From: Bradyrhizobium sp. ORS 285
GTDB lineage: Bacteria; Pseudomonadota; Alphaproteobacteria; Rhizobiales; Xanthobacteraceae
DNA length: 64,000 nt
Reading direction: 5' to 3'
Assembly: GCF_900176205.1 (NCBI RefSeq)
Contig: NZ_LT859959.1
Span: 2,687,001 to 2,751,000 of the forward strand
A program made the position numbers and the translations under genes. The notes under the pieces are model-generated. The model was not told the origin of the DNA. It saw only the letters and a list, made by a program, of their open reading frames with translations, and ran no database searches. Below are positions 16,975 through 23,093 of this stretch, in pieces (the stretch's first letter is position 1; each line of letters opens with the position of its first letter).

Positions 16975-18936
16975 GTGGATATGCTGCTGGAACCTGTTAC
17001 GCTGCCGCCATTTCCGGAAGGCATCCGAATTTCGTTGAGGCAGATGCATCTTCTCCAGGCTCCCATGGGCGGCACCCTGGTGACCGGGGGCGCCACCTTC
17101 CGCGTGTTCGCGCCGCATGCCAAGGCGGTCTACGTGTCCGGCCCGTTCAACGACTGGGCGCAGGATGCGAGCTGCCGTCTCGCGCCGATCGGCAACGGCC
17201 ATTGGGCGATCTTCATCCCCGGCCTCAAGGACGGCGACGCCTACATGTACTTCGTCGAAGGCGAGGGCAATTCGGGCTACAAGCGCGATCCGCATGCGAG
17301 ACTGCTGACGGTCGATCCGCCGTTTCCGCAGGCGCATTCGGTGCTGCGCAATCCGCAAGCCTTTCCCTGGCACGACACCGATTTCACGCCGCCGCCCAGC
17401 AATGAGCTCGTGATCTATCAGCTTCATGTCGGCACGTTCGACATGAAGGCCGGCAACCCCGACGGCTGCTTCTTCGACGTCATCGAGCGCGTGCCGCATC
17501 TGAAGAAGCTCGGCGTCAACGCGATCGAGCTGTTGCCCGTGCAAGAATTCCCGTCGATGTTCAGCATGGGCTACAACGGCACCGACCTGTTCAGCCCGGA
17601 AACCGACTACGGCGAGCACGAGGATACGAATCTCGCGGCCTACTTCGCGCGCACCAACGAGATCCTGACGGCCGCGGGTGCCGCGCCTTACGCCGACATC
17701 GGCGTCGTCAGGCATTGCGACGACCAGCTGCGCGCGCTGATCGACGTCTGCCATGTTTATGGCATCGCCGTGCTGTTCGACGTCGTCTACAACCATGCCG
17801 GCGGCGGTTTCGACGAGGCCAGCATCTGGTTCTTCGACCGCCAGCCTTACGGCGATCCCAACCGGAGCCTGTATTTCACCGACCAGGGCTGGGCCGGCGG
17901 CCAGGTGTTTGCCTATTGGAACGCCGACGTGCGGCAGTACCTCGTCGACAACGCCATCATGTTCTATCGCGAATATCACGCCGACGGCCTGCGCTTCGAC
18001 GAGGTCAGCGTGATGGACCGCTTCGGCGGCTGGGCAACCTGTCAGCAGCTGACCGAGGCGTTGCGCGCGGAGAAGCCGGACGCGATCCAGATCGCCGAGT
18101 TCTGGCCGGTCAATCCATGGGTGGTAAAGGACATTGCGCAAGGCGGTGCTGGTTTCGACGCAACCTGGAGCGATGGCCTGCGGCTCGCCGTGCGCGGCGC
18201 CATTGCCAGTGCGGCCGGCGGAGCAGGGGCTCATGTCGCCATGCAGCCGATCGCCACTGCCATCGCCGATCTCGGCCTCGGCAACCGCTGGCGCGCGGTC
18301 AATTCGATCGAGAACCACGACATCGTCTATGCCGGCCGCGAGCCGCGCATCTCGCGTCTCGCCGATCCCATCGACAGCCGCTGCTGGTACGCCCGCAGCC
18401 GCTGTCGCGTCGCCACTGGTCTGTTGCTGACTGCGCCGGGCATCCCGATGCTGTTCATGGGCCAGGAGATGTTCGAGGACCGGCCGTGGAGCGACACGCC
18501 GAGCCTGGACACCACGATTCAGTGGGCGCTGCTCGACGGCGAGGACAAGATCACCGCGGACGCGATGCGCTTCACATCGGAGCTGATTGCCATCCGCCGC
18601 ACCCATCCGGCGCTGGCGGCCGAGGGCTGCGCCATCGTCCACGTCCACGACGCCAACCGCGTGCTCGCCTTCCACCGCTGGGACGGGCAGGGCGACGACG
18701 TCATCGTGATCGTCAGCCTGAGCGAAACGCCGTGGCGCGACTACGCGATCGGCTTTCCGGCGGCAGGGACGTGGCACGAGGTGTTCAACAGCGACGTCTA
18801 CGACAATTGGGTCAATCCGGGCGTGGTAGGCAACAACGGCGCGGTGAATGCGAACGGCCCCGCGCTGCACGGCCAGCCCAGCTCGGCCATGGTGACGATC
18901 CCGGCGAATGGCGTGCTGGTGTTCGCGCGGAAATGA
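16975..18936 (+). CDS. GH13 alpha-amylase-family protein, branching-enzyme-like
   Basis: The 653-residue protein starts at GTG after GGGGGGCGAG (an ATG two codons in is an alternative). Residues ~25-115 form a CBM48-like N-terminal domain (TFRVFAPHAKAVYVSGPFND). The catalytic barrel follows, with YQLHVGTF, the nucleophile block DGLRFDEVS (Asp near 341), the acid block IAEFW (Glu near 375) and the third acid in ENHD (~447). The C-terminal ~110 residues are an all-beta domain. This arrangement suits glycogen branching enzyme or a maltooligosyl-trehalose hydrolase-type enzyme. The sequence alone does not choose between them. No other glycogen gene is nearby. Confidence 0.85.
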   Translation: MDMLLEPVTLPPFPEGIRISLRQMHLLQAPMGGTLVTGGATFRVFAPHAKAVYVSGPFNDWAQDASCRLAPIGNGHWAIFIPGLKDGDAYMYFVEGEGNSGYKRDPHARLLTVDPPFPQAHSVLRNPQAFPWHDTDFTPPPSNELVIYQLHVGTFDMKAGNPDGCFFDVIERVPHLKKLGVNAIELLPVQEFPSMFSMGYNGTDLFSPETDYGEHEDTNLAAYFARTNEILTAAGAAPYADIGVVRHCDDQLRALIDVCHVYGIAVLFDVVYNHAGGGFDEASIWFFDRQPYGDPNRSLYFTDQGWAGGQVFAYWNADVRQYLVDNAIMFYREYHADGLRFDEVSVMDRFGGWATCQQLTEALRAEKPDAIQIAEFWPVNPWVVKDIAQGGAGFDATWSDGLRLAVRGAIASAAGGAGAHVAMQPIATAIADLGLGNRWRAVNSIENHDIVYAGREPRISRLADPIDSRCWYARSRCRVATGLLLTAPGIPMLFMGQEMFEDRPWSDTPSLDTTIQWALLDGEDKITADAMRFTSELIAIRRTHPALAAEGCAIVHVHDANRVLAFHRWDGQGDDVIVIVSLSETPWRDYAIGFPAAGTWHEVFNSDVYDNWVNPGVVGNNGAVNANGPALHGQPSSAMVTIPANGVLVFARK

Positions 18937-19048: not shown

Positions 19049-19185
19049 GTAGGGTGGGCAAAGGCGCTGCACTGCTCTCCTCACGAATGAGATCGCAGAG
19101 GCGCCGTGCCCACCATTCTGCCGACGTGCTCGCGGATGCGCGGTGGGCACGCTGCCGCCTTTGGCGGCCGCTTTGCCCACCCTAC
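19049..19185. repeat. Intergenic palindromic repeat, GTAGGGTGGGCAAAG family (copy 2)
   Basis: Outer arms are GTAGGGTGGGCAAAGG and CTTTGCCCACCCTAC, with the inner pair GTGCCCACC / GGTGGGCAC. It sits between the convergent GH13 and NAD-kinase-like genes. Confidence 0.85.
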
Positions 19186-19236
19186 GGGTCCGAGCCGCAC
19201 GGCGATGTGTGAGAGATGGACGCCTGTCTCTCCACC

Positions 19237-19310
19237 GTCATTGCGAGCGTAGCGAAGCAATCCAGGATGATGGGCGGGACTCTGGATTGCTTCGCTGCGC
19301 TCGCAATGAC
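19237..19310. repeat. Palindromic repeat, GTCATTGCGAGCG family (copy 2)
   Basis: Left arm GTCATTGCGAGCGTAGCGAA then GCAATCC; right arm GGATTGCTTCGCTGCGCTCG then CAATGAC. Together with the two preceding repeats it fills most of the 422-base gap between convergent genes; no gene lies in the gap. Confidence 0.85.
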
Positions 19311-19358
19311 GTGGTGAGAGCGGCGCGCCCCATCGGCGAAGCAATTTGTAGAGGCAGA

Positions 19359-20288
19359 CTACACAATCAATCGCCCCTGTCGTTCCGCAATTCCGATCAC
19401 CGCCTCCGTCCCCGCATTGAAATCGAGATGATCCGCCTCGATGCCATCGGAGAAGATCACGCCGTTCTCGGGCATCAGCGAGCGCAGCCGCAAGGTCTCG
19501 GCACCATCGAGTCCGCCGCACACCAGTGAGGTCTGCGACGTCTTGCTCGGGAACGGCTCGCGGACGGCGAAACGGAGCGCGCGGGCGTCCCAGGGCAGGG
19601 CGGTGTAGTCGCCATCGCCATGGCTGCCATAGCTGTCGGCAATGGCCAGCGCGCCGGTGACGATGCTCTTGAACCAGGCGGTCGAGCCGAGGCCGGTTGC
19701 CACGATCAGGCCGCTGGACGACTGCCGCTCCTGGGCGTCGCGCGTGGCGATCTCGTAGCGCGCCGAGACATGCGTGCGCGCGCCGATGAAGAGGTCGTTG
19801 ACGGCGTACAGAACCTGGCCGTCGGCAAGGCTGGCGCGCGCCATGGTCACCGCCTTGGCCGCGCGCTTGTCGGCGGCGACCTCCGGCAGAAGGCTGGCGA
19901 GATCATCCGGCGCGAACGGCAGCAGCACGCCGTCATGGAGCTGCTTGTCCGGGTTGAGGCCGAGCAGCGGCTGGCCGTCGAGATATTTCATGGTATTGGC
20001 GACCAGCCCGTCGGGGCCGAGGGCCGCGACGATATCGGCGGGGCCGAAGATGAAGTTCGGCAGGAAGCCGCGGTCGATGATCTGGTAGCGCCCCCAGCGC
20101 TCCAAGGTCTGCGTCGCCGTGGCGCGCGCGGCCTGGTAGGCCGCGTGCTCGCGTTCGTAGTCGGAGAAGTCGGCGCCGAGATGCTCGACATAGAAGCGGG
20201 CCTGATCCGCGGTGAGGAACTTTGCGATCAGCTCCTCCAGCCGCGTTCTCCTGGTGACCAGCACCACCTTACGGTCACTGCCGGACAC
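19359..20288 (-). CDS. NAD-kinase-like protein (non-canonical)
   Basis: The 309-residue protein has two landmarks of the ATP-NAD kinase fold. The first is a glycine-rich loop LGPDGLVANTM (residues ~90-100) where kinases have GGDGT. The second is the C-terminal-domain block GLIVATGLGSTAWF (193-206), equivalent to the kinase (T/S)P-x-GSTAY motif, with NDLFIGARTHVS before it. The first Gly of GGDGT is replaced by Pro and the Thr by Leu, so it may not phosphorylate NAD. It is often the kind of gene labelled sugar kinase. Its start overlaps the end of the SPFH gene by 14 bases, so the two are coupled. Confidence 0.7.
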   Translation of the reverse strand: MSGSDRKVVLVTRRTRLEELIAKFLTADQARFYVEHLGADFSDYEREHAAYQAARATATQTLERWGRYQIIDRGFLPNFIFGPADIVAALGPDGLVANTMKYLDGQPLLGLNPDKQLHDGVLLPFAPDDLASLLPEVAADKRAAKAVTMARASLADGQVLYAVNDLFIGARTHVSARYEIATRDAQERQSSSGLIVATGLGSTAWFKSIVTGALAIADSYGSHGDGDYTALPWDARALRFAVREPFPSKTSQTSLVCGGLDGAETLRLRSLMPENGVIFSDGIEADHLDFNAGTEAVIGIAERQGRLIV

Positions 20289-21312
20289 GGGGCGCCTCCG
20301 CGGGCTTCTGCATCAGGCTGTTCAGCAGCTCCGGCGAGACGTTGAGCTGGCCGATCTTCTCGGCCTTTTCGGCCAATCCAGAGAACGCCTGCGCGATCAG
20401 CTGGCCCGGCTGCATGCCGGTCGCCGCCAGCGCCTGGATCACGCGGGTGTCGACGCCCTCGAAGATCTTCATCAGCGCGCCGACGCGATAGGCTTCTGCA
20501 TCCGCCAAGGTGCGGGTGTTCGCCGCGTTCAAGGAGACGAAGTCCTTGCGCTTGGCCTCCAGCCCGATGTCGGCGACCATGCCGGCCTCGCGCAGCTCAT
20601 TCTTCTTCGCCGCGACGCTGGCCTCCGCGTCCATCTGCGTCTCGCGGATCGACCGCTTCTTCTGCTCGACCGCGATCTCGGTATCGAGCTCGCTCTCGCG
20701 GATGGCGCGCTCACGTTCGACCGCGAAATTGCGCCGGGCGAAGATGGCCTCGTCGGCGGTCTTCAGGATCGCCTCGCGGGCTTCCGCTTCCAGCGCCTTG
20801 GCGGTCTCCGGCGTCGGCTTCACCGCGCGCACGGCGACGCCGAGGATCTCCAGACCCAGCGCATCGATATCGGCGCGTTGCTTCAACCCGGTCGCGATCG
20901 CCTCGGCAATGCGGTCGGAGGCGCGCAGCGCTTCCTTCAAGGTCATGTCCTTGACCGCCTGCTGCGCCAGCACCTCGACCGCGCCCAGCACGCGCTGCGG
21001 CAGCTCCTCGGGGTCATCGGATTCGTACGACTTGCCGTCGCGCTTCAGCGTGAAGTTCAGCATCGCCGCTGCCTTCTTCGGCTCACCGATGCGGTAGGTG
21101 ACCTGGCCCTGGATCGTCAGCGTCTGAAAGTCGCGGGCGATCTGCTGGAAGATGAACGCGGCATCGCGGCTGCCGATCGGGATCGCGACCAGCGAGGTGG
21201 CGGGTCCGTAATAGAAGGTGGAGAGCCCGGCGCCTTCCTCGACGATCGCGCCGGCGCGGTACTTGAGCAGGTAGGTGGTGGGCTGGGCCTTGATGAAACG
21301 CAAGCCGAACAT
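20275..21312 (-). CDS. SPFH/band-7 domain protein without obvious membrane helix
   Basis: The 345-residue protein carries an SPFH (stomatin/prohibitin) domain over residues ~20-200 (LSTFYYGPATSLVAIPIG, then FQTLTIQGQVTYRIGEPKKA). A long charged helical region (~195-290, many Ala/Glu/Arg, likely coiled coil) and a C-terminal tail follow. No N-terminal hydrophobic helix is visible, unlike flotillins and HflK/C, so it is probably soluble or peripherally bound. SPFH proteins oligomerise into rings or cages. Coupling to a NAD-kinase-like protein and divergence from an NrtR-like regulator suggest a nucleotide-linked stress assembly (inference). GGAGG precedes the ATG. Confidence 0.85.
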   Translation of the reverse strand: MFGLRFIKAQPTTYLLKYRAGAIVEEGAGLSTFYYGPATSLVAIPIGSRDAAFIFQQIARDFQTLTIQGQVTYRIGEPKKAAAMLNFTLKRDGKSYESDDPEELPQRVLGAVEVLAQQAVKDMTLKEALRASDRIAEAIATGLKQRADIDALGLEILGVAVRAVKPTPETAKALEAEAREAILKTADEAIFARRNFAVERERAIRESELDTEIAVEQKKRSIRETQMDAEASVAAKKNELREAGMVADIGLEAKRKDFVSLNAANTRTLADAEAYRVGALMKIFEGVDTRVIQALAATGMQPGQLIAQAFSGLAEKAEKIGQLNVSPELLNSLMQKPAEAPRVRQ

Positions 21313-21350
21313 GGCGGCCTCCTGTGGTTCGATGGCGTAAGTGTGTCACG

Positions 21351-21395
21351 CCAACTAAGTAAGTTGGACAGTACAACTAAGCATGCTAGTGTCAA
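21351..21395. promoter_or_regulatory. Overlapping divergent promoters with CCAACT/AGTTGG operator
   Basis: Plus strand: TTGGAC (21364-21369), 17 bases, TAGTGT (21387-21392), towards the Nudix-type gene. Minus strand: TTGACA (read from 21395-21390), 16 bases, TACTGT (21373-21368), towards the SPFH gene. The inverted repeat CCAACT-N5-AGTTGG (21351-21367) and a further CAACT half-site (21374-21378) overlay the minus -10. This would let one repressor close both promoters. Confidence 0.55.
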
Positions 21396-21420
21396 GGGGC
21401 AAAATCGAGGGGATGGTGGT

Positions 21421-22173
21421 ATGGCAGGACGGCAGGGGCAGGGCGGTGGATCAGGGGATCAGGCGGGTGGCAAGAGGGCCGGGCTGGATTTCCCGCGGCC
21501 CCTGACCACCGTCGACATCGTCATCTTCACGATCCGGCTGGAGGCGCTGCACGTCCTGCTGGTGCGTCGCGGCCATGCCGACGGGGAGCCGTTTCCGGAC
21601 GCCTTCGCGCTGCCCGGCGGCTTCGTCGACGTGACCAGGGATGCCGACCTCGCCGCCTGCGCCGGGCGCAAGCTCGCCGAGAAGACCGGCGTCGTCAGCC
21701 CCTATCTGGAGCAACTCGGCAGCTGGGGCAGCGCCACGCGCGACCCCCGCGGCTGGTCGGCGACCCATGCCTATTTCGCGCTGATCCCCGCCTCAGCAGC
21801 GGAAAAGACCCTGGCGGCCGATGCGCAATGGTTTCCGCTTGAGGGCAGCACCGTGAAGCCGAAGCTCGCCTTCGATCATGCCGAGATCCTGCATGCCGCC
21901 GTGCAGCGGCTGCGTAATAAGGTCGAGTATACCTCGCTCCCGGCCTATCTGATGCCGGAGGAGTTCACTCTGCCCGAGCTGCAGCGGACCTATGAGATCG
22001 TGCTCGATCGTCCGCTGGAGAAGAGCGCGTTCCGCACCCGCATGCTCTCGGCCGACCTGATCGAGCCGATCGACAAGATGCGCAAGGGCCCGAACCGGCC
22101 GGCGCAGCTCTACCGGCTGAAGAAGGCCGCCGCGCCGGTGTATTTCGCGCGAACGTTCAACGCGCCGGAGTGA
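21421..22173 (+). CDS. NrtR-like Nudix / winged-helix regulator
   Basis: The ATG at 21421 gives a 250-residue protein; the open frame upstream is antisense to the SPFH gene and is discounted. Residues ~30-160 are a Nudix domain (TTVDIVIFTIRLEALHVLLV, FALPGGFVDV). Its Nudix box reads RKLAEKTG where active enzymes have RE-x2-EE-x-G. Residues ~175-245 are a winged-helix-like domain (EEFTLPELQRTYEIVLDRPL, FRTRML), as in NrtR repressors, which sense ADP-ribose or NAD metabolites. The loss of metal-binding Glu residues fits a sensor rather than a hydrolase. It likely regulates the divergent SPFH/NAD-kinase-like pair. Confidence 0.8.
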   Translation: MAGRQGQGGGSGDQAGGKRAGLDFPRPLTTVDIVIFTIRLEALHVLLVRRGHADGEPFPDAFALPGGFVDVTRDADLAACAGRKLAEKTGVVSPYLEQLGSWGSATRDPRGWSATHAYFALIPASAAEKTLAADAQWFPLEGSTVKPKLAFDHAEILHAAVQRLRNKVEYTSLPAYLMPEEFTLPELQRTYEIVLDRPLEKSAFRTRMLSADLIEPIDKMRKGPNRPAQLYRLKKAAAPVYFARTFNAPE

Positions 22174-22180
22174 CGTTCCC

Positions 22181-22276
22181 ATAGCCCGCATGAGCGCAGC
22201 GACATGCGGGATTCTACGCGCCGTGAGGGGGCGGCCCGTCTGCCTCGCCACCGTCATTGCGAGCGCAGCGACCTGC
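22181..22276. repeat. Composite of two partial palindromic repeats
   Basis: A half copy of the CCCGGATGAGCG family (ATAGCCCGCATGAGCGCAGC, 22181-22213, with the compensating change GACATGCGGG) is followed by the left half of the GTCATTGCGAGCGCAGCGA family. The latter runs straight into GCGCTCATC of the first family. The right arm of the second family is missing. Confidence 0.6.
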
Positions 22277-22294
22277 GCTGCGCTCATCGGTCGG

Positions 22295-22849
22295 TCAGGC
22301 CGAGAAATCCACCACCAGCGACTTGCTTGTCGAACTCGACGAGGTACTTCCGTTGGCGCTGTAGGACGACGTCTTGCTGCTGTTCGAGCTCTGTAGCGCC
22401 TCGAGCAGCTTCTTCAGAAGCTCTTCGACCTGAGACGAGGAGTCCGAGGACGTCGATGACGAGGTGCTCGACGTCGTGTCGGTGCCGGAATCATCGCTCG
22501 GCGGCGGACCGCCGGCGCCACCAGGACCGCCGGAGAAGGCATTGGCGAACACGTTTTTCAGCTCGCTCGCCTGGTCGGAGGTGAGCTTGCCGCTGTCGAC
22601 CTCGCTCTGGATGAGATCGTCGATCTTCGACTGCATCTCCTTGGGCGACGGCGGCGTGGAGCTCGTCGATGAGGAGGACGAGCTACTGCTGCCGCTCTGT
22701 AGAGCGGAATCGATATCGTCGAGCGCCGAGGACAGCGCGGTCTGGTCCGTCGAGCTGACCTTGCCGGCGGAGACTTCCTTGGTGAGCTCCTGCTTGAGCA
22801 AATCGAGCGGCGAGTAGCCACTCATGGAGGAGGCAGAGATCGACGTCAT
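22295..22849 (-). CDS. Ser/Thr-rich low-complexity protein, possibly secreted
   Basis: The ATG at 22849 follows CGGAGC; the frame is open for 40 more codons but those look non-coding. The 184-residue protein has two short amphipathic segments of similar plan (SPLDLLKQELTKEVSAGKVS and IDDLIQSEVDSGKLTSDQAS), each followed by A/S-L-x-N/D. These are separated and followed by long Ser/Thr tracts, including runs of eight or more Ser and a Gly/Pro patch. The protein ends in KSLVVDFSA. No signal peptide is present. Similar Ser-rich proteins are common in Bradyrhizobium; function unknown. A type I-type C-terminal export signal is conceivable but not shown. Confidence 0.6.
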   Translation of the reverse strand: MTSISASSMSGYSPLDLLKQELTKEVSAGKVSSTDQTALSSALDDIDSALQSGSSSSSSSSTSSTPPSPKEMQSKIDDLIQSEVDSGKLTSDQASELKNVFANAFSGGPGGAGGPPPSDDSGTDTTSSTSSSTSSDSSSQVEELLKKLLEALQSSNSSKTSSYSANGSTSSSSTSKSLVVDFSA

Positions 22850-23093
22850 GACGTGCTCCGATGGTTGTGACATCAAACCTGCATCCAGCTGTTGATCGGA
22901 GCGCTTAACAGCTTCTTGTGCTGTATGTCCCGATGTGTCCGGAGCCAGGCTGCACACAAAACGAAGCAAGAAAGTAGGCCGACCCCGTGTTTTTGCGGGG
23001 CGTTCGCAAGTGTGGCTACGAAGGGCGCCAGACGAATTATTAAGGACGAGCGGTGAAAGTAGCTCCGGAGAATTTCGGGGTGGAATTGATCAG

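What the first reader, a model, noticed from the sequence alone, without database searches (positions are those of the whole stretch)
19359..22173. NrtR-like sensor, SPFH ring protein and NAD-kinase-like protein form one divergent cluster
Seen: a coupled minus-strand pair (SPFH protein and NAD-kinase-like protein, 14-base overlap) facing an NrtR-like Nudix-winged-helix gene across overlapping promoters. Known: NrtR-type repressors sense ADP-ribose/NAD metabolites, SPFH proteins build ring or cage assemblies, and the NAD-kinase fold binds NAD. Inference: a NAD-metabolite-controlled assembly, possibly for stress or phage defence or NADP balance. The NAD-kinase-like protein has an altered GGDGT loop (GPDGLV), so it may bind a nucleotide without classical kinase activity.
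Basis: partly seen in the sequence, partly recalled or inferred. Interest (0 to 1): 0.75.

Follow-up and report, generated by a model that had tools for sequence, protein, structure and literature searches.

The report
NrtR-controlled SPFH and NAD-kinase-like pair
Three neighbouring bacterial genes - a switch of a type that senses a breakdown product of NAD, a ring-forming type of protein and a distant cousin of the enzyme that turns NAD into NADP - travel together through many bacteria and look like a so far undescribed module for keeping NAD in balance.

The parts
19359..20288 (-). NADKL: NAD-kinase-superfamily protein, 309 aa, nearest to NADK2; motif GPDGLVAN (family GQDG)
   Evidence: no Pfam match
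20275..21312 (-). SPFH (Band_7) protein, 345 aa, no clear membrane segment, helix 168-284 in the model
21421..22173 (+). NrtR-type regulator, 250 aa: Nudix-like domain plus NrtR winged helix; Nudix box degenerate (RKLAEKTG)
21360..21380 (.). Predicted NrtR operator, 21-bp palindrome TAAGTTGGACAGTACAACTAA (+ strand)
21338..21358 (.). Decayed second palindrome copy, 22 bp from the first; better kept in other Bradyrhizobium loci
   Evidence: my reading
21390..21395 (-). Predicted -35 (TTGACA) of the SPFH-NADKL promoter; its weak -10 (TACTGT, 21368-21373) lies inside the palindrome
   Evidence: not found by the strict scan
21364..21392 (+). Possible NrtR promoter, TTGGAC-17-TAGTGT, overlapping the palindrome and the SPFH -35
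   Evidence: my reading; not found by the strict scan

Best explanation
An NAD(P)-homeostasis module. NrtR represses itself and the SPFH-NADKL operon from tandem palindromes that cover the -10 region. When NAD is being broken down, ADP-ribose binds its degenerate Nudix domain and it lets go. SPFH assembles through its SPFH domain and long helix into a ring or cage without a membrane anchor and works with NADKL, a divergent NADK2-type protein that binds an NAD-like dinucleotide and most likely phosphorylates it (NAD to NADP). Shown by computation: gene identities, linkage of SPFH and NADKL, palindromes, NAD-kinase fold, retained motif Asp, NAD and ADP-ribose neighbours in some lineages. Inferred: ADP-ribose as ligand (from characterised NrtRs, recalled), the assembly, SPFH-NADKL contact, substrate and catalysis.
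For: Linkage. Regulator and operator. Fold and nearest relative NADK2. Motif Asp invariant and paired with that of the genome's NAD kinase. NAD-salvage or ADP-ribosylation neighbours; virus-collection contig L133. SPFH fold.
Against: Gly-to-Gln (here Pro) change in the phosphate-binding loop and no Pfam or NCBIfam cut-off met. NAD or ADP-ribose neighbours are absent from 45 of 45 Bradyrhizobium and 9 of 9 plasmid loci. NrtR is not adjacent in L102 and L104, Treponema (a relative lies about 4 kb away), Kitasatospora and Streptomyces. The genome has an ordinary NAD kinase elsewhere, so a second one needs a reason. No complex was modelled; the SPFH model has pTM 0.50.
Confidence: 0.5

Rival explanations
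1. NADKL is a non-catalytic NAD(P) or ADP-ribose receptor; ligand binding changes the SPFH assembly, so the pair is a metabolite-gated scaffold.
For: Changed phosphate-binding loop in the whole family; a canonical NAD kinase exists elsewhere in the genome; obligate pairing with SPFH.
Against: The Asp and the N-D/E, SSSG and TGxGST positions are kept across deep branches and align with the genome's NAD kinase, which looks like a used active site; GGDGL in that kinase shows that the Thr is dispensable (recalled: it is the only NAD kinase found).
Confidence: 0.25
2. NADKL is a kinase for another substrate, such as ADP-ribose, NMN or a lipid, in the same superfamily as diacylglycerol kinases.
For: Loop differs from GGDGT; weak sub-cut-off DAGK_cat match of one deep member (0.0061); ADP-ribosylation-related genes beside L067, L100, L074, L077; records often name it 'sugar kinase'.
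Against: Sequence and fold are nearest to NADK2; salvage operons L080 and L099 make NAD.
Confidence: 0.15
3. The unit is an anti-phage or anti-toxin defence module that answers NAD depletion.
For: Patchy: 12 of 398 genomes; on plasmids in 69 records; near NADAR, DUF4291, ADP-ribosylglycohydrolase in L067 and L100 and a RES NAD+ phosphorylase about 2.6 kb away in one Rhizobium plasmid.
Against: No PADLOC match; no phage record; local NrtR control and salvage operons fit metabolism; a virus-collection contig carries it itself.
Confidence: 0.08
4. The three genes are neighbours by chance and not functionally related.
For: Only that NrtR is not adjacent in some lineages.
Against: 80 of 80 and 79 of 80 loci; same 12 of 398 genomes for SPFH and NADKL; conserved palindromes between the genes.
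Confidence: 0.01

Closest known systems
NrtR, ADP-ribose-responsive Nudix-related repressor (solved relative 3GZ5/3GZ6)
   Same: Nudix-like domain plus NrtR winged helix, degenerate Nudix box, palindromic site in its own divergent promoter region
   Different: Target is SPFH-NADKL instead of (or, in some lineages, besides) NAD-synthesis genes; NCBIfam equivalog cut-off 400 not reached (231.8 bits)
NadQ regulator of nadABC (described in PMC5343134, passages seen)
   Same: Same winged-helix family; this genome has a NadQ-like protein upstream of nadA-, nadB-, nadC-like genes (L109; gene names are my reading of the translations)
   Different: NadQ lacks a Nudix domain and, per that paper, has a different operator (ttATRCTCannntGAGYATaa)
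NADK2, mitochondrial NAD kinase (7R4J-M, 7N29)
   Different: 22% identity; GGDGT becomes GQDG[VLIM]; paired with SPFH; activity unknown
Canonical bacterial NAD kinase (PF01513)
   Different: No PF01513 match for the window protein; the genome's true NAD kinase is a separate gene
SPFH assemblies: HflK/C, stomatin, prohibitin, erlin, flotillin, vault
   Same: SPFH domain followed by a long helix
   Different: No clear membrane segment in the window copy and an obligate NADK-like partner

Membership tests
NrtR regulators | Nudix-like N-terminal domain and NrtR winged helix | tested here: met
   NUDIX 1.1e-10, NrtR_WHD 4.2e-23, both above cut-off
NrtR regulators | Non-hydrolytic, degenerate Nudix box (recalled definition) | tested here: met
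   RKLAEKTG in place of REUXEEXG (sequence); activity itself not measured
NrtR regulators | Palindromic operator of about 21 bp at its targets | tested here: met
   strict form in 64 of 78 divergent regions against 0.2% of shuffles; unique in the genome
NrtR regulators | NCBIfam equivalog NF050029 cut-off | tested here: not met
   231.8 bits against 400; so a NrtR-family protein, not that equivalog
NrtR regulators | Release from DNA by ADP-ribose | not testable with these tools
   needs binding assays
NAD kinase | NAD-kinase fold | tested here: met
NAD kinase | PF01513 match or NCBIfam NAD-kinase cut-off | tested here: not met
   no Pfam match; best NCBIfam 20.9 bits against 211
NAD kinase | GGDGT motif | tested here: not met
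   GQDG in 75 of 81 and GPDG in 6 of 81 rows; its Asp is invariant in A4
NAD kinase | Phosphorylates NAD | not testable with these tools
   needs enzyme assay
NADK2 subfamily | Closer to NADK2 than to other NAD kinases | tested here: inconclusive
   best by sequence and fold but at about 22% identity and without a tree that includes eukaryotic NADK2
SPFH/Band_7 | Band_7 match above cut-off and SPFH fold | tested here: met
   58.9 bits against 23.6
SPFH/Band_7 | N-terminal membrane anchor, common in known assemblies (recalled) | tested here: not met
   highest 19-residue Kyte-Doolittle mean 1.1 in the window copy; above 1.6 in 5 of 81 rows. Vault protein also lacks one (recalled), so it does not exclude membership
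SPFH/Band_7 | Ring or cage oligomer | not testable with these tools
   only single chains could be modelled
Known anti-phage systems (PADLOC-DB) | Match to a PADLOC model | tested here: not met
   0 families for each of the 3 proteins

The most novel reading that the evidence does not exclude
SPFH-NADKL is an undescribed, obligately paired NAD(P) machine: an SPFH ring or cage without a membrane anchor encloses or displays a bacterial NADK2-type enzyme with a new active-site signature (GQDGxV.NxxKYL). ADP-ribose switches it on when NAD is being destroyed, and it has spread between phyla, plasmids and a virus-collection contig together with salvage and ADP-ribosylation genes. It would be a bacterial scaffold or compartment for nicotinamide nucleotides, loosely reminiscent of the vault and its PARP4 partner.
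Probability: 0.3. Interest if true: 0.85.

Novelty: new variant of a known kind. Interest (0 to 1): 0.6.

Why it matters
Public records call these proteins 'sugar kinase', 'NAD kinase', 'hypothetical protein' and 'SPFH domain-containing protein', so the unit is hidden from annotation. If the reading is right, one small operon joins an NAD-breakdown sensor, a polymerising scaffold and a NADK2-type protein. That gives a bacterial comparison for mitochondrial NADK2 and a simple, testable model of an SPFH assembly that organises metabolism.

Tried and rejected
Chance neighbourhood: rejected. A dead NAD kinase in this strain only: rejected, since GQDG is family-wide and the Pro form is confined to the window and L002-L006 among 81 rows. 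Ordinary NAD kinase: rejected, since the genome has one elsewhere and NADKL reaches no cut-off. Known defence system: no PADLOC match. Phage origin: nothing in 50,697 phage records, no PHROGs match, 2 loci in IMG/VR; L134 carries the same run NADKL-DUF4291-NADAR-glycohydrolase as the bacterial locus L100 and may be host DNA. Strict sigma-70 scan of 19100-22400: nothing. My two ORF-based neighbourhood clusterings were partly spoilt by shadow ORFs in GC-rich DNA; I then relied on tblastn with defined queries.

Weak points of my counts; the queries came from L067, L100 and the window's relatives; without L067 and L100 it is 6 of 49 against 0 of 40, and L074 and L077 are relatives of each other. 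Half of the controls come from G246, whose own pncA and pncB lie at its NADKL locus and so could not turn up elsewhere, which lowers that control. In one search two further weak ADP-ribosylglycohydrolase-like matches (L050, L119; 25-26% identity) were seen; they fall outside the stricter limit. Searches used E limits of 1e-10 and 1e-20 that I chose; SPFH proteins of other subfamilies are below the latter. The loci are the best 80 of 371, so they lean to close relatives. The shuffles keep only base composition, and the -35/-10 pair count has no shuffle control. PncB-, PncA- (L133), nadA-, nadB- and nadC-like names are my reading of translations or of tblastn with an unsearched query; the L080 PncA-like protein scores below the Isochorismatase cut-off (22.4 against 27).

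Literature: no paper holds NrtR with SPFH, SPFH with NAD kinase and operon, SPFH with NADK2, or SPFH domain-containing protein with sugar kinase and NUDIX; NADK2 with bacterial origin, NAD kinase and mitochondrial gave none; the one paper with 'band 7' and NrtR is on vegetation mapping. PMC5343134, PMC7159879 and PMC9503650: passages only; all others: listings only. The founding NrtR paper (10.1093/nar/gkn047, PMC2330246) is not held and may mention these genes. That NrtR leaves DNA on ADP-ribose, and the names of the motifs GGDGT and REUXEEXG, are recalled.
Full report
What is there. The window lies in a 7.8-Mb single-contig genome (G000). The nearest loci by NADKL are Bradyrhizobium strains, BTAi1 among them (93-95% identity for L002-L005). 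On the minus strand an SPFH protein (21312..20275, 345 aa) overlaps a 309-aa NAD-kinase-like protein, NADKL (20288..19359), by 14 nt. A divergent NrtR-type regulator runs from 21421 to 22173. Annotated Rhizobium plasmid loci show the same 14-nt overlap (L122, L123, L132).

The cluster is conserved. A scan of species genomes gave 371 relatives of NADKL; the best 80 were kept: 45 Bradyrhizobium and 35 others, among them alpha-, beta- and gammaproteobacteria. All 80 have the SPFH gene directly upstream and 79 have NrtR on its other side; the 80th (L057) starts inside SPFH. In L074 and L077 NrtR points the same way as the pair. A draw of 398 Pseudomonadota genomes had NADKL in 12 (E <= 1e-10). The SPFH profile at E <= 1e-20 hit the same 12 and no other, and the two genes lie side by side in each. 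NADKL was in 5 of 399 genomes of the order of G246 and in 4 of 385 of the window's class, and in 2 of the 10 genomes listed as own or same genus. Of 16 deeper loci, 16 have SPFH beside NADKL and 12 have NrtR; L106 and L107 stop at contig ends, while L102 and L104 have other genes there. NADKL occurs in 69 plasmid records, 42 of them Rhizobium. In those I opened, NUDIX/SPFH/NADKL is annotated in three Rhizobium plasmids, Moraxella osloensis and Providencia alcalifaciens and found by tblastn in Cupriavidus. SPFH/NADKL without an adjacent NrtR is seen in Treponema saccharophilum, where an NrtR relative lies about 4 kb upstream, in Kitasatospora and in a Streptomyces. The core is therefore the SPFH-NADKL pair; NrtR is its usual regulator in Pseudomonadota.

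Regulation. The divergent region carries a 21-bp palindrome. GTTGN7CAAC occurs in 64 of 78 divergent regions against 0.2% of shuffles; a relaxed form occurs in 76 of 78 against 5.7%, twice or more in 45 of 78. In the window it lies at 21360-21380, with a decayed copy 22 bp away (21338-21358). With up to 3 mismatches it is the only site in the genome, and the reversed control pattern gives none. TTGAC is in 75 of 78 regions (13% of shuffles), and in 72 of 78 a -10-like hexamer follows at 16-18 nt; in the window that hexamer lies inside the palindrome. This layout fits repression of SPFH-NADKL and of nrtR itself. The window fails a strict sigma-70 scan, so the promoters rest on conservation. The Nudix box reads RKLAEKTG, away from the recalled catalytic REUXEEXG; the same stretch reads RKLAEKTA in the solved NrtR relative 3GZ5. 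A second protein with the NrtR winged helix but no Nudix match lies upstream of nadA-, nadB- and nadC-like genes (L109) and fits NadQ as described in PMC5343134 (passages). De novo NAD synthesis thus seems to have its own regulator, and this NrtR looks dedicated to SPFH-NADKL.

What SPFH is. Band_7 scores above its cut-off. The model has an SPFH domain and a helix from 168 to 284 (mean pLDDT 78, pTM 0.50; 299-309 and 311-345 unreliable). Its best matches are HflK/C, stomatin, erlin, flotillin, prohibitin and vault. The window copy has no clear membrane segment. Assembly is inferred from the family.

Neighbours that point to NAD. At one E-value limit and with the same queries, NAD-salvage or ADP-ribose genes were found in 6 of 35 non-Bradyrhizobium first-set loci, 2 of 16 deep loci, 0 of 45 Bradyrhizobium loci, 0 of 9 plasmid loci and 0 of 40 evenly spaced control stretches of two genomes. 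The link holds in some lineages only and the control is small (weak points under Tried and rejected). The clearest cases: L080 (SPFH-NADKL-PncA-PncB-NadE-NadM-like, one strand), L099 (SPFH-NADKL-PncA-PncB-like), L067 (NADAR, DUF4291 and the four salvage genes nearby), L100 (DUF4291, NADAR, ADP-ribosylglycohydrolase after NADKL) and L074/L077 (ADP-ribosylglycohydrolase beyond NrtR). A 257.5-kb IMG/VR contig (L133) holds in a row an NrtR-like C-terminus, an isochorismatase-like ORF (my reading), ClpP, DUF3228, SPFH, NADKL and a NAPRTase-like gene (20.3 bits against 20.8; 22.4). Whether that contig is a true virus was not tested.

Mechanism and verdict. The best-supported account is an NAD-stress module: ADP-ribose releases NrtR, SPFH and NADKL are made, an SPFH assembly works with NADKL, and NADKL acts on an NAD-like dinucleotide, most likely as a kinase. 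Shown by computation: gene identity, linkage, palindromes, fold, neighbours. Inferred: ligand, assembly, physical partnership, catalysis. The main rival is a non-catalytic sensor; another kinase substrate comes next; phage defence is weakly supported. I found no paper on the unit in the held library, but the founding NrtR paper could not be opened. I rate it a new variant of a known kind: regulator, fold and scaffold families are known, while the obligate SPFH-NADKL pair and its signature appear undescribed.

Noticed in passing
L125, L126, L128 (plasmid records): NADKL, with a whole (L126) or truncated (L125, L128) SPFH gene, lies directly beside tetR(H)/tet(H) on Moraxella, pHHV216 and pAST2 plasmids; shorter NADKL pieces occur in several other plasmid records whose neighbours I did not read. 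The tet(H) module may have picked up part of this cluster from a Moraxella-like chromosome or plasmid.
   Followed up: partly
L109 (G000:C1:4231000-4243000): The genome's second NrtR-winged-helix protein, without a Nudix match, sits upstream of nadA-, nadB- and nadC-like genes, as NadQ would.
   Followed up: partly
L133 (IMGVR_UViG_3300023296_000874, 257.5 kb): A virus-collection contig with SPFH, NADKL and a NAPRTase-like gene in a row, beside ClpP and DUF3228.
   Followed up: partly
window 19236-19315 and about 22257-22275: A long inverted repeat (CGTCATTGCGAGCG ... CGCTCGCAATGACG) beside the 3' end of NADKL, and a similar stretch after NrtR; looks like a dispersed palindromic repeat (read).
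   Followed up: no
window 16975-18936 (+): A CBM48/alpha-amylase protein that matches branching-enzyme and TreZ models well below their cut-offs.
   Followed up: no
window 22295-22969 (-): A serine-rich low-complexity protein of 224 aa without any match above a curated cut-off.
   Followed up: no
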